From Acidobacteriaceae bacterium (GTDB taxonomy: Bacteria; Acidobacteriota; Terriglobia; Terriglobales; Acidobacteriaceae): a stretch of DNA of 64,000 nt. The DNA is taken from positions 124,001-188,000 of the forward strand of contig DASZBM010000002.1 in the NCBI GenBank assembly GCA_035944135.1, written 5' to 3'. Under the pieces are notes generated by a model that worked only from the letters and a program-made list of their open reading frames with translations, did not search any database and was not told where the DNA came from. Below are positions 303-53,443 of the stretch, one piece after another. Numbering within the stretch: position 1 is the stretch's first letter; every line of letters starts with the position of its first letter. Both the position numbers and the translations under genes were made by a program.

Positions 303-1856
303 GTGACTCCTCAGACATCAGTGGCTCAAGAGGCGAAATACAGAGGTCCTTCGGCTGCGCCTCAGGATGACGGCGGCTCTGTGGGGGTACGTGCGCCGCA
401 CTTTGTGCAAGGGTTGGGGTTGTTTTCGGCGACGGCGATTGTGATGGGCTCGATGATCGGGTCGGGCATTTTTATCGTGCCCGCCGAGATGAGCCGCGTG
501 GTGGGGTCGCCGGCGCTGTTGATTGCAGCGTGGGCGGTGACGGCGCTGATGACGGTGATTGGCGCACTGAGCTATGGCGAGCTGGCGGCGATGATGCCGA
601 AGGCTGGCGGGCAGTATGTGTACCTGCGCGAGAGTTTGGGGCCGATTTGGGGATTTTTGTACGGGTGGACGCTGTTTACGGTGATCCAGACGGGAACGAT
701 TGCCGCGGTGGGCGTGGCGTTCGGTAAGTTTCTGGGGGTGTTTTTCCCGAGCATCAGCCAGACGAACTGGATTGTGCACGTGGGCTCGGGGAATGTGGGG
801 CTGAGCACGGCGAATTTGGTGGGGATCGTCGTGATTGTGCTGCTGACGTTCACGAATACGCGCGGCGTGAAGACGGGCGCGGCGGTGCAGAACGTTTTCA
901 CGACGACGAAGGTGCTGGCGCTGCTGGGCGTGATCGCGGTGGGGCTGATTGCGAAGAATGCAGTTGCGCACGCTGCGAATTTTGGCGTGGGCTGGCATAA
1001 CTTCTGGGCGGGAGCGCACTGGGGAACGCCGCATGTGGTGCAGGTTGGGTCGTTCCTTGGGCTGGGCGGCGGGACGGCTGTGGTCGGCGTGCTGACGGTG
1101 GTTGCGGTGGTGCAGGTGGGGTCGCTGTTTTCGAGCGATGCGTGGAATAACGTGACGTTCACGGCGGGCGAGGTGCGGAATCCGAAGCGGAACCTGCCGC
1201 TGTCGCTGGCGATTGGAACGGGCGCGGTGAGCCTGCTGTATATCGCGTGCAACTTTGTGTATCTGAACGTGCTGCCGATGAGCGGGATTGCGAATGCACC
1301 GCAGGACAGAGTGGCGACGGCGGTGATGCAGACGGCGTTTGGGCCAGTGGGTGCGAAGCTGATGGCGGCGGCGATCCTGGTGAGCACGTTCGGGTGCGTG
1401 AACGGGATGGTGCTGGCGGGGGCGCGCGTGTATTACGCGATGAGCCAGGATGGCCTGTTCTTCAAGAGCACGGGGAAGCTGGACAGCAAGGGCGTGCCGA
1501 AGAACTCGCTGTGGATGCAGTGCGCGTGGACGTGCCTGCTGTGCCTGAGCGGACAGTACGGCAACCTGCTGGATTACGTAATCCTGGCGGCGCTGGTGTT
1601 TTATGCGCTGACGATTGTGGGGCTGTTTGTATTGCGGCGGACGGAGCCGGATGCGGCGCGTCCGTACAGGGCGTTTGGGTATCCGGTGCTGCCGGGGCTG
1701 TACATCGTGATGGCGGTGTGGATTTGTGGCGTGCTTTTGCGATACAAACCCCAGTACACTTGGCCGGGACTGATTCTGGTGCTGCTTGGCGTGCCGGTGT
1801 ACCTGGTGTGGAGATGGGTGGGAAGTAGAGATCAGAGATTAGAGATTAGAGATTAG
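303..1856 (+). CDS. APC-family amino acid permease
   Basis: A 517-residue inner-membrane protein with about 12 hydrophobic segments, of the amino acid/polyamine/organocation superfamily. The first membrane segment holds the substrate-loop motif GSMIGSGIF and the middle holds GEVRNPKRNLP, both typical of this family. Substrate cannot be read from sequence. The GTG start at 303 is uncertain: codons 15-24 are made of a palindromic repeat (see 347-367), and an in-frame GTG at 381 would exclude it. The last codons and the stop lie in a 7-bp tandem repeat (1826-1860), so both ends of the reading frame are built on repeat DNA. A second, differently related permease follows 40 bases downstream. Confidence 0.85.
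   Translation: MTPQTSVAQEAKYRGPSAAPQDDGGSVGVRAPHFVQGLGLFSATAIVMGSMIGSGIFIVPAEMSRVVGSPALLIAAWAVTALMTVIGALSYGELAAMMPKAGGQYVYLRESLGPIWGFLYGWTLFTVIQTGTIAAVGVAFGKFLGVFFPSISQTNWIVHVGSGNVGLSTANLVGIVVIVLLTFTNTRGVKTGAAVQNVFTTTKVLALLGVIAVGLIAKNAVAHAANFGVGWHNFWAGAHWGTPHVVQVGSFLGLGGGTAVVGVLTVVAVVQVGSLFSSDAWNNVTFTAGEVRNPKRNLPLSLAIGTGAVSLLYIACNFVYLNVLPMSGIANAPQDRVATAVMQTAFGPVGAKLMAAAILVSTFGCVNGMVLAGARVYYAMSQDGLFFKSTGKLDSKGVPKNSLWMQCAWTCLLCLSGQYGNLLDYVILAALVFYALTIVGLFVLRRTEPDAARPYRAFGYPVLPGLYIVMAVWICGVLLRYKPQYTWPGLILVLLGVPVYLVWRWVGSRDQRLEIRD
347..367. repeat. REP-like imperfect palindrome, TCCTTCGG...CTCAGGA type
   Basis: The motif begins TCCTTCGGC and ends CTCAGGA, an imperfect inverted repeat. A relative occurs at 45708-45727 (TCCTTCGACTTCGCTCAGGA). 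Here it sits inside the annotated N-terminus of the amino acid permease, before the first membrane segment. Confidence 0.55.
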
Positions 1857-1860
1857 AAAT
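1826..1860. repeat. Heptamer tandem array, unit TAGAGAT (5 copies)
   Basis: Five head-to-tail 7-base units: TAGAGAT, CAGAGAT, TAGAGAT, TAGAGAT, TAGAAAT. The array covers the last codons and stop of the upstream permease and runs into the leader of the next permease. It is one of ten period-7 arrays in the window. Confidence 0.85.
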
Positions 1861-1896
1861 TCTGGATACGGACAGGGATTAGGAGAAGCAGAAAGC

Positions 1897-52543: not shown

Positions 52544-53296
52544 TTAGCTGTAGTGGACGATTTTGGCGAAGGTTTCCGGATTGAGGCTGGCGCCGCCGAC
52601 GAGCGCGCCGTCGATGCCGTCCTGCGCCATGAGATCGGTGATGTTGTCGGGCTTGACGGAGCCGCCGTAGAGGATGCGGGTGCGCTCTGCCATTTCGCCG
52701 CTGCAGCAGTTGCCGAGCTCGTGGCGGACGATGCGATGGGCTTCCGCGGCGATTTCGGGTGTGGCGGTTGAGCCGGTGCCGATGGCCCAGACGGGTTCGT
52801 AGGCGATGACGAGGCGGCGGGCCTCGGCGGAGGAGACGTTCTTGAGAGCGGCGCGGATTTGCGTCCGGATGGTCTCTTCGGTGCGGCCGTCTTCGCGCTC
52901 GGTGAGGGTTTCGCCGACGCAGACGATGGGCGTGAGCCCGTGGTTGATGGCGGCCTTCAGCTTGAGGTTGACGCGCTCGTCAGTCTCGTTGAAGTAGAGA
53001 CGCTGCTCGGAGTGGCCCAGCAGAACGTGGCGGCAGCCGATGGACATGAGCATGGTGGGCGAGATTTCGCCAGTGTATGGGCCTTCGTTGAGCCAGTGCA
53101 TATTTTGTGCGCCGGCGCGGACGTTGTGGTCGTCAGTGGCGATGATGGCGGCGGCGAGCGAGGTGAAGGGAGGGAAGATGAGGATCTCGTCGCGCTCATG
53201 GCCGGCGATGAGTGGAAGAAGAGTTTCGATGAAGGCTACGGATTCGTTGGGGGTTTTGTACATCTTCCAGTTGCCGGCGATGATCGGCTTGCGCAT
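52544..53296 (-). CDS. tpiA: Triosephosphate isomerase
   Basis: 250 residues. Interconverts dihydroxyacetone phosphate and glyceraldehyde 3-phosphate. Lys11 (AGNWKMY), His95 (GHSEQR) and Glu167 (AYEPVWAIGTG) are the catalytic residues; the loop-7 GGSVKP and the final GALVGGASL are intact. Usual family length. It is near pgk but not in the same operon, because another gene and a repeat lie between them. Confidence 0.97.
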   Translation of the reverse strand: MRKPIIAGNWKMYKTPNESVAFIETLLPLIAGHERDEILIFPPFTSLAAAIIATDDHNVRAGAQNMHWLNEGPYTGEISPTMLMSIGCRHVLLGHSEQRLYFNETDERVNLKLKAAINHGLTPIVCVGETLTEREDGRTEETIRTQIRAALKNVSSAEARRLVIAYEPVWAIGTGSTATPEIAAEAHRIVRHELGNCCSGEMAERTRILYGGSVKPDNITDLMAQDGIDGALVGGASLNPETFAKIVHYS

Positions 53297-53380
53297 GCGG
53301 TGTAGAGAGCTCCAGGAGAACGGTTTTTGGTGATCAAGGGAAGTATTTCATAGGCCGGGCGGGGTGAGGGTTTGCGCGAT

Positions 53381-53443
53381 CAGTTTGCAGTTCACAGTTT
53401 GCAGTTCGCAGTTAAACTCGAAACTGAAAACTGACGACTGAAA
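53381..53443. repeat. Two opposed heptamer arrays, CAGTTYG and ACTGAAA types
   Basis: Five units CAGTTTG, CAGTTCA, CAGTTTG, CAGTTCG, CAGTTAA, then ACTCGAA, ACTGAAA, ACTGACG, ACTGAAA. The second block is close to the reverse complement of the first, so the whole can fold as an imperfect stem. It ends about 15 bases before the TTG start of the four-helix-bundle gene. Confidence 0.82.

What the first reader, a model, noticed from the sequence alone, without database searches (positions are those of the whole stretch)
1826..53443. A dispersed family of 7-bp-period tandem repeats
Ten arrays of head-to-tail heptamers (1826, 7262, 44597, 44692, 45607, 46221, 46750, 50758, 50814, 53381) share a strict period of 7 although their units differ. 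Unit types recur at distant sites: GTAGAGG-like at 7262, 46221 and 46750; GAGATGC at 44597 and 45607; GAGCTGT at 44692 and 50758; CAGTTTG at 50814 and 53381. Eight arrays lie within 9 kb. Cyanobacterial STRR heptamers are the closest precedent that I know; I do not recall a description from Acidobacteriota. The strict period with changing unit suggests a common generating process rather than a common ancestor.
Basis: partly seen in the sequence, partly recalled or inferred. Interest (0 to 1): 0.8.

Follow-up and report, generated by a model that had tools for sequence, protein, structure and literature searches.

The report
Heptamer arrays mark IVP gene elements
The short 7-letter DNA repeats scattered through this bacterium look like the end-repeats and loose copies of a tiny selfish-looking element that carries one gene of unknown function, which would link two old puzzles: where bacterial 7-letter repeats come from and what this gene does.

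Summary
In detail: all ten heptamer arrays are there, and lag-7/14 self-matches occur at a score where shuffles average 0.0. [quoted passage not shown]).

IVP genes account for the repeats. Of 109 IVP loci from four phyla, 76 have a lag-7 array within 170 bp (600 bp further out: 4 of 98), and in 78 the two flanks are inverted copies (far: 2 of 98). Ordinary frames of this genome: 40 and 3 of 645. Array matches per genome follow IVP number (rho 0.81, 41 genomes) more than Y1 transposase (0.46) or reverse transcriptase (0.11). Units mostly read NAG plus four letters; five NAGs is the commonest count above two (62 flanks, against 32 with four and 9 with six), and solved IVP relatives have five chains. 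Units follow IVP phylogeny.

Best reading: an IVS-like element outside rRNA whose pentamer recognises five heptamers; most window arrays are gene-less copies. The association is well supported; binding and movement are inferred.

The parts
53459..53806 (+). IVP gene (23S_rRNA_IVP, four helix bundle protein), TTG start, 115 aa, between tpiA and pgk
   Evidence: PF05635 E 2.6e-32; TIGR02436 E 1.5e-30
53381..53413 (+). heptamer array, five CAG units (CAGTTTG/CAGTTCA/CAGTTCG)
53414..53449 (-). degenerate inverted partner array; with 53381-53413 forms a hairpin upstream of the IVP gene
   Evidence: RNA fold z -4.19
1826..1861 (+). solo array YAGAGAT, five AGs
7260..7291 (+). solo array TAGAGGG-like, four AGs
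44597..44628 (+). solo array GAGTTTC/GAGATGC alternating
44692..44722 (+). solo array GAGCTGT/GAGCTTC, five AGs
45607..45637 (+). solo array GAGATTC/GAGATGC alternating, five AGs
46221..46249 (+). solo array TAGAGGG between EVE-domain gene and murI
46750..46779 (+). solo array TAGAGGG-like inside murI (murI 46258-47280, - strand); about ten extra residues against L001
   Evidence: glutamate racemase TIGR00067 E 9.5e-56
50758..50793 (+). solo array CAGCTGC/GAGCTGT inside rsmA (rsmA 50198-51373, - strand)
   Evidence: ksgA TIGR00755 E 1.6e-63
50817..50853 (+). solo array CAGTTTT/CAGTTTG inside rsmA; with the previous one part of an in-frame insert absent from 18 of 21 same-genus relatives with a match

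Best explanation
The heptamer arrays belong to a small selfish-looking element whose only recognised gene is IVP (PF05635). SHOWN: IVP genes sit between genes of other function, mostly with tandem arrays of about five heptamers next to them, and the two flanks are usually inverted copies of each other (sense strand NAG+4 upstream, its complement downstream). Unit letters differ between elements, agree between the arms of one element, and follow IVP phylogeny. Genomes with more IVP genes have more arrays. INFERRED: an IVP homopentamer holds single-stranded RNA or DNA with one NAG heptamer per subunit, which would fix the period at 7 and the number near 5 and leave the spacer letters free (recalled analogy: the TRAP ring on (G/U)AG triplets). 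INFERRED: arrays without the gene, such as nine of the ten in this window, are copies spread or kept in trans, as REPINs are by RAYT transposases (recalled). How DNA is cut and joined is unknown; a reverse transcriptase or Y1 transposase seems not to be required.
For: IVP gene behind the 53381 array. Lag-7 array near 76 of 109 IVP loci, far 4 of 98; inverted flanks 78 of 109, far 2 of 98; seen in Acidobacteriota, Pseudomonadota, Verrucomicrobiota and cyanobacterial plasmids; ordinary frames 40 and 3 of 645. IVP number against array matches rho 0.81, 41 genomes. AG chains: 62 flanks with five, 32 with four, 9 with six; one locus per site keeps five above four and six in 500 of 500 draws. PDB relatives 2gsc and 2rld with five chains each. 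AG invariant in 26 of 32 5' arrays and 25 of 29 3' arrays. Mantel r 0.33, different-site pairs 0.23. In-frame array inserts in rsmA and murI missing from relatives. RVT_1 not found in G000, G001, G024, G025, G039, and Y1_Tnp not found in G025 and G034, all with arrays.
Against: No binding, movement or expression was tested. 33 of 109 IVP loci have no lag-7 array at the threshold; some of these have octamers or decayed arrays, others none that I can see. Genomes G027 and G035 have an IVP gene but no AGT-array match, and G020 and G021 have matches without a detected IVP (G021 has more control matches than matches). The reversed-pattern control is not clean in array-rich genomes (G000 39 against 122 matches, G039 124 against 196). 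Octamer arrays exist beside some IVP genes. Some arrays lack AG. Xanthomonas GGGAATC repeats are reported to prefer four units (PMC4692102 abstract). The window's own IVP has both arms upstream, not one on each side. Genomes and sites are related, and no phylogenetic correction was made.
Confidence: 0.55

Rival explanations
1. Replication slippage with a 7-nt step set by polymerase contacts makes heptamer arrays anywhere (proposal of Mrazek et al. 2007 as told in the introduction of PMC4679880). The IVP link would be incidental.
For: Heptamer excess is reported from many bacteria. Long arrays of 8 to 19 AG units exist, so slippage does act.
Against: 76 of 109 IVP loci against 40 of 645 ordinary frames; inverted arms; five-unit peak rather than steady decline; units follow IVP phylogeny.
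Confidence: 0.15
2. The arrays are regulatory or RNA-processing signals: IVP is a host RNA-binding regulator, and arrays at gene junctions are its operators or RNase III stems. Selection, not selfish spread, places them.
For: Arrays start a median 4 nt after the upstream stop codon (n=46) and end a median 9 nt before the next start (n=45). Inverted arms fold. The Coxiella IVS is cut by RNase III (PMC4990558 abstract).
Against: Arrays also lie inside rsmA and murI as extra residues. In the G000 sample arrays occur in both orientations relative to genes (crude frame caller). No shared gene function among sites was seen, though this was not tested.
Confidence: 0.2
3. IVP genes insert into existing heptamer hairpins, so the arrays are targets and not part of the element.
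For: Gene-less inverted array pairs exist (G000 C4:27987/28073).
Against: Arms are inverted, so insertion into a plain direct array is excluded for those loci; unit type follows IVP phylogeny also across different sites.
Confidence: 0.1
4. Reverse transcription (DGR or group II intron like) or a Y1/REP transposase spreads the arrays.
For: PF05635 resembles Avd (NF033474 E 3.4e-5, below its cut-off; PMC10053308 passages). Y1 number correlates weakly (rho 0.46).
Against: No RVT_1 match in G000, G001, G024, G025 or G039; no Y1_Tnp match in G025 or G034; RT rho 0.11.
Confidence: 0.04

Closest known systems
23S rRNA intervening sequence with S23/IVP ORF (Coxiella burnetii IVS, PMC4990558)
   Same: About 430 nt, one S23/IVP ORF, inverted ends (28-bp stem), and two or three heptamers GACAGAT just upstream of the ORF (abstract and passages)
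   Different: Here the element lies between protein genes, the inverted ends are themselves heptamer arrays, and gene-less arrays are dispersed
Cyanobacterial heptamer repeats (STRR) and TAACTGA repeats (PMC4679880)
   Same: Period 7, mixed related units, mostly intergenic (sections 3 and 10 and passages)
   Different: There no gene partner was named; here arrays accompany IVP genes. I did not test the TAACTGA genomes for IVP
GGGNATC repeats of Xanthomonas and Nostoc (PMC4692102)
   Same: Heptamers, short arrays, between genes (abstract and introduction). One Pseudomonadota IVP locus, L340, has GGGAATC units upstream
   Different: Proposed there to form G-quadruplexes; preference for four units
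REPIN / RAYT (recalled)
   Same: Dispersed gene-less inverted repeats plus a gene-bearing form
   Different: No Y1 transposase is linked; repeats are heptamer arrays
DGR accessory protein Avd
   Same: Same protein superfamily by the comparison in PMC10053308
   Different: No reverse transcriptase match in this genome
TRAP and its (G/U)AG repeats (recalled, no call)
   Same: Ring protein with one triplet per subunit, as proposed here for IVP
   Different: Unrelated fold; 11 subunits; binding here not tested

Membership tests
IVP protein family PF05635 / TIGR02436 | profile match over the curated cut-off | tested here: met
   111.7 bits against 33.8; 105.6 against 24
23S rRNA intervening sequence | lies inside a 23S rRNA gene | tested here: not met
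   between tpiA and pgk; no rRNA family match in the window
23S rRNA intervening sequence | inverted terminal repeats around an S23/IVP ORF | tested here: met
   78 of 109 IVP loci; not in this form at the window locus, where both arms are upstream
23S rRNA intervening sequence | excision by RNase III | not testable with these tools
   needs RNA work
REPIN / RAYT system | a Y1 (HUH) transposase gene of the RAYT kind in the genome | tested here: not met
   no PF01797 match in array-bearing G025 and G034; G000 has two matches, not checked for RAYT type
Diversity-generating retroelement | reverse transcriptase | tested here: not met
   no RVT_1 match in G000
Short tandemly repeated repetitive sequences (descriptive class) | dispersed tandem heptamers | tested here: met
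Transposon in general | target-site duplication | not tested
   array-free orthologous sites were seen for rsmA and murI, but junctions were not analysed for duplications

The most novel reading that the evidence does not exclude
Bacterial heptamer repeats in at least four phyla are the footprint of one family of minimal selfish elements. A single pentameric IVP protein reads five NAG heptamers on single-stranded nucleic acid, and its symmetry sets the period and copy number of the arrays. IVP lineages evolve their own unit letters, gene-less arrays are their satellites, and 23S rRNA intervening sequences are the case where such an element landed in an rRNA gene.
Probability: 0.4. Interest if true: 0.93.

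Novelty: new variant of a known kind. Interest (0 to 1): 0.82.

Why it matters
It offers one cause for two unexplained things: the excess of 7-bp repeats in bacteria (so far put down to polymerase contact length, regulation or quadruplexes) and the role of the widespread IVP / four-helix-bundle genes. It makes sharp predictions: IVP should prefer five-unit NAG ligands at 7-nt spacing, unit preference should follow IVP clade, and genomes without IVP should be poor in heptamer arrays. It also shows repeat arrays entering essential proteins (MurI, RsmA) in frame.

Tried and rejected
Reverse transcriptase and Y1 transposase as drivers: disfavoured. Viral carriage: one viral-contig scan with the window IVP, which reaches close relatives only, found none. 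Rfam on the window at gathering scores: two tRNAs, nothing at the arrays. RNA fold of the solo array 44595-44632 is not unusual (z -1.26), unlike the inverted pairs. Orientation: in G007 the AG strand agrees with the GC-skew sign of the nearest 20-kb sample at 16 of 21 array positions, and in G000 it is mostly on the G-rich strand, but gene direction is confounded with skew and my frame caller was crude (it put rsmA on the wrong strand), so I conclude nothing.

Published link: searches of the held open-access library showed no paper that ties IVP genes in general to flanking heptamer arrays; the Coxiella passage is the nearest. Searches were broad and only their top listings were seen. Subscription journals are not held.

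Rows left out of counts: of 60 PF05635 rows, five were not fetched and two (L229, L230) were not located by tblastn, leaving 53 loci. Of 40 rows, 30 came as loci and 28 were located (L257, L271 not); 53+28=81 loci. Of 60 rows, only the 29 new loci returned were used, giving 110; one (by its length L324) lacks a usable 3' flank, hence 109. Loci returned are the best-scoring ones, so weak or broken IVP copies are under-represented. The eight inverted pairs were picked for spacing of about 345-480 bp; six hold an IVP frame, L163 and L167 do not. The far control is 600 bp further out, mostly coding; one search adds flanks of ordinary called frames (IVP frames were not removed from it).

Full report
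OBSERVATION. The ten heptamer arrays exist where stated (sequences). At a lag-scan score of 14 the window has three lag-7 and five lag-14 segments and none at the other lags from 4 to 24; shuffles average 0.0 at lags 7 and 14. Several arrays alternate two related heptamers. Written from the AG, the units share one shape: a first letter (usually C, G or T), AG, then four variable letters. By automatic count the arrays at 1827, 44693, 45608, 50759, 50822 and 53382 have exactly five AGs at period 7, that at 7266 four, that at 46221 four or five by phase, and those at 44584 and 46733 six.

THE GENE. Behind the 53381 array are an inverted partner (53414-53449) and a frame, 53459-53806, that matches the 23S rRNA-intervening sequence protein family (PF05635, E 2.6e-32; TIGR02436, E 1.5e-30). 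It lies between tpiA and pgk. The two arms fold as a hairpin (z -4.19). In relatives, AGT-phased heptamers often come as + and - strand pairs (a capped listing). Of eight inverted pairs about 345-480 bp apart that I opened, six enclose an IVP frame.

TESTING THE LINK. PF05635 was sought in 41 related genomes (26 have it), in 23 genomes or plasmid records behind other loci (15 have it) and in 200 Pseudomonadota genomes (37 have it, 34 over the cut-off). After the exclusions told under Tried and rejected, 110 loci remain, 109 with both flanks usable. A lag-7 array (score >=10) lies within 170 bp in 76 of 109, against 4 of 98 for the same stretch 600 bp further out; lag 8 gives 6 and lag 6 gives 4 near the gene. 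Aligning the 5' flank with the reverse complement of the 3' flank reaches 24 in 78 of 109, against 2 of 98 far out. Inverted similarity exceeds direct by more than 6 in 74, and the reverse in 7. Flanks of ordinary called frames give 40 of 645 and 3 of 645 in 864 kb of this genome, and 23 of 311 and 3 of 311 in 400 kb of G007. By group, lag-7 near the gene: Acidobacteriota 46 of 73, Pseudomonadota 23 of 29, cyanobacterial plasmids 4 of 4 (far 1 of 4), Verrucomicrobiota 3 of 3 from one genome.

DOSAGE. Overlapping AGTNNNN x4 matches per genome correlate with IVP number: rho 0.81 over 41 genomes, 0.76 over the 26 that are at least 90% complete. Three or more matches occur in 22 of 26 genomes with IVP and 2 of 15 without. 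Reverse transcriptase gives rho 0.11 and Y1 transposase 0.46. Exceptions: G027, G031, G035 and G040 have IVP and fewer than three matches; G020 and G021 the reverse. The reversed-pattern control is high in array-rich genomes (G000 39 against 122, G039 124 against 196), and an AGT period-8 pattern also finds real octamer arrays in some genomes, above all G025. No phylogenetic correction was made.

FIVE UNITS. The pentamer idea was noted after reading the window arrays and before counting at IVP loci. Over both flanks of 110 loci the longest AG chain at period 7 is 0-2 in 69, 3 in 28, 4 in 32, 5 in 62, 6 in 9 and 7 or more in 20. With no mismatch allowed, 4, 5 and 6 units occur 34, 56 and 6 times. 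Drawing one locus per site (47 site groups) keeps five above four and six in 500 of 500 draws. In the first 81 loci, 5 against 4 has binomial p 0.003 and 5 against 6 p 1e-8, treating flanks as independent, which they are not. AG chains of four or more occur in 48 and 42 of 81 flanks; the next dinucleotide, GT, in 25 and 22. IVP relatives in the PDB, 2gsc (E 5e-16) and 2rld (E 1.4e-6), have five chains each, and the title of the 2gsc paper, seen only in reference lists, speaks of five four-helix bundles.

UNITS FOLLOW THE PROTEIN. Units differ between loci, also within G000 (CAGTTTG, TAGGTTC, TAGTGGT, TAGTGAA and the octamer AGTCAGCR), yet agree between the arms of one locus. Unit similarity correlates with IVP similarity: Mantel r 0.33 (60 loci, 0 of 2000 permutations); different-site pairs only, r 0.23 (0 of 5000); one locus per site (29 sites), mean r 0.19, mean permutation p 0.005. 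One IVP clade carries AGTCAGCR octamers at one shared site in G002, G022 and Edaphobacter lichenicola M8UP30 (read by eye as pheS-pheT) and elsewhere in G000 and in Edaphobacter aggregans, which suggests that gene and arrays move together.

SOLO ARRAYS. Nine of the ten window arrays have no IVP next to them. In the G000 sample, types TAGTGAA and TAGTNGT also occur as inverted hairpins (L177 fold z -12.17). Arrays entered genes in frame. RsmA has 128 residues between two conserved motifs in the window, 119, 117 and 110 in G002, G022 and G012, and 94-100 in the other 18 same-genus loci. The G002 and G022 inserts hold heptamers with other letters. MurI has about ten residues more than in L001; the EVE-murI gap of L001 has a degenerate array of another type.

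SITES. Where a stop or start could be found, arrays begin a median 4 nt after the upstream stop codon (n=46) and end a median 9 nt before the next start (n=45). Flank similarity groups the loci into recurrent sites. Apart from tpiA and pgk, site names such as mutL, rplQ or nuoC-nuoD were read by eye and not run against profiles.

MECHANISM. Shown: gene family, flanking inverted arrays, five-unit peak, unit-protein covariation, dosage. Inferred: a pentamer reading five NAG heptamers on single-stranded nucleic acid; a stem of the two arms; spread of gene-less arrays in trans. Unknown: how strands are cut and joined. No nucleic-acid binding was tested.

WHAT IS KNOWN. Heptamer excess and a polymerase-contact explanation are told in the introduction of PMC4679880 (outline, sections 3 and 10, passages). 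GGGNATC repeats are in PMC4692102 (abstract and introduction). The nearest precedent is the Coxiella IVS paper PMC4990558 (abstract and passages): an S23 ORF with a 28-bp terminal stem, two or three heptamers GACAGAT upstream of the ORF, and an older proposal that such ORFs serve mobility. PMC3936711 (passages) reports IVP genes in cas loci, often with cas4 or cas6; PMC10053308 (passages) compares PF05635 with Avd. PMC5524665, PMC8700078 and PMC10910872 (passages only) mention IVP or four-helix-bundle genes without repeats. No paper seen makes the general link.

VERDICT. Real, above chance and tied to IVP genes in four phyla. Filed as a new variant of IVS-type elements: it works like an IVS outside rRNA with REPIN-like satellites, but is not a member of 23S IVS, REPIN/RAYT or DGR, since a defining feature of each was tested and not met.

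Noticed in passing
L240 1285-1966 (Pseudanabaena galeata plasmid NZ_CP112875.1): An IVP gene sits between cas6 and cas4 inside long GCTAAAA/AAAAGCC heptamer arrays, in line with the report of IVP genes in cas loci.
   Followed up: partly
L168, L217, L209, L181 (G025): One genome has both octamer (AGTATTTC-like) and heptamer arrays around its IVP genes and many octamer arrays elsewhere.
   Followed up: partly
L177 480-620 (G000:C4): Inverted TAGTGAA arrays enclose a strong GC-rich hairpin between convergent frames; it looks like a bidirectional terminator.
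   Followed up: no
L340 5' of the IVP frame: GGGAATC heptamers, the unit described from Xanthomonas, lie upstream of an IVP gene in an unnamed Pseudomonadota genome.
   Followed up: no
L319, L321, L322, L328, L331, L254: Several Pseudomonadota IVP genes share one junction that by eye reads as nuoC-nuoD.
   Followed up: no
   Followed up: no
G007 and G000 array strands: The AG strand tends to lie on the G-rich strand (16 of 21 positions in G007); replication and gene direction could not be separated.
   Followed up: partly
window 21080-21160 and 32993-33077: Two tRNA genes, the only Rfam matches in the window.
   Followed up: no
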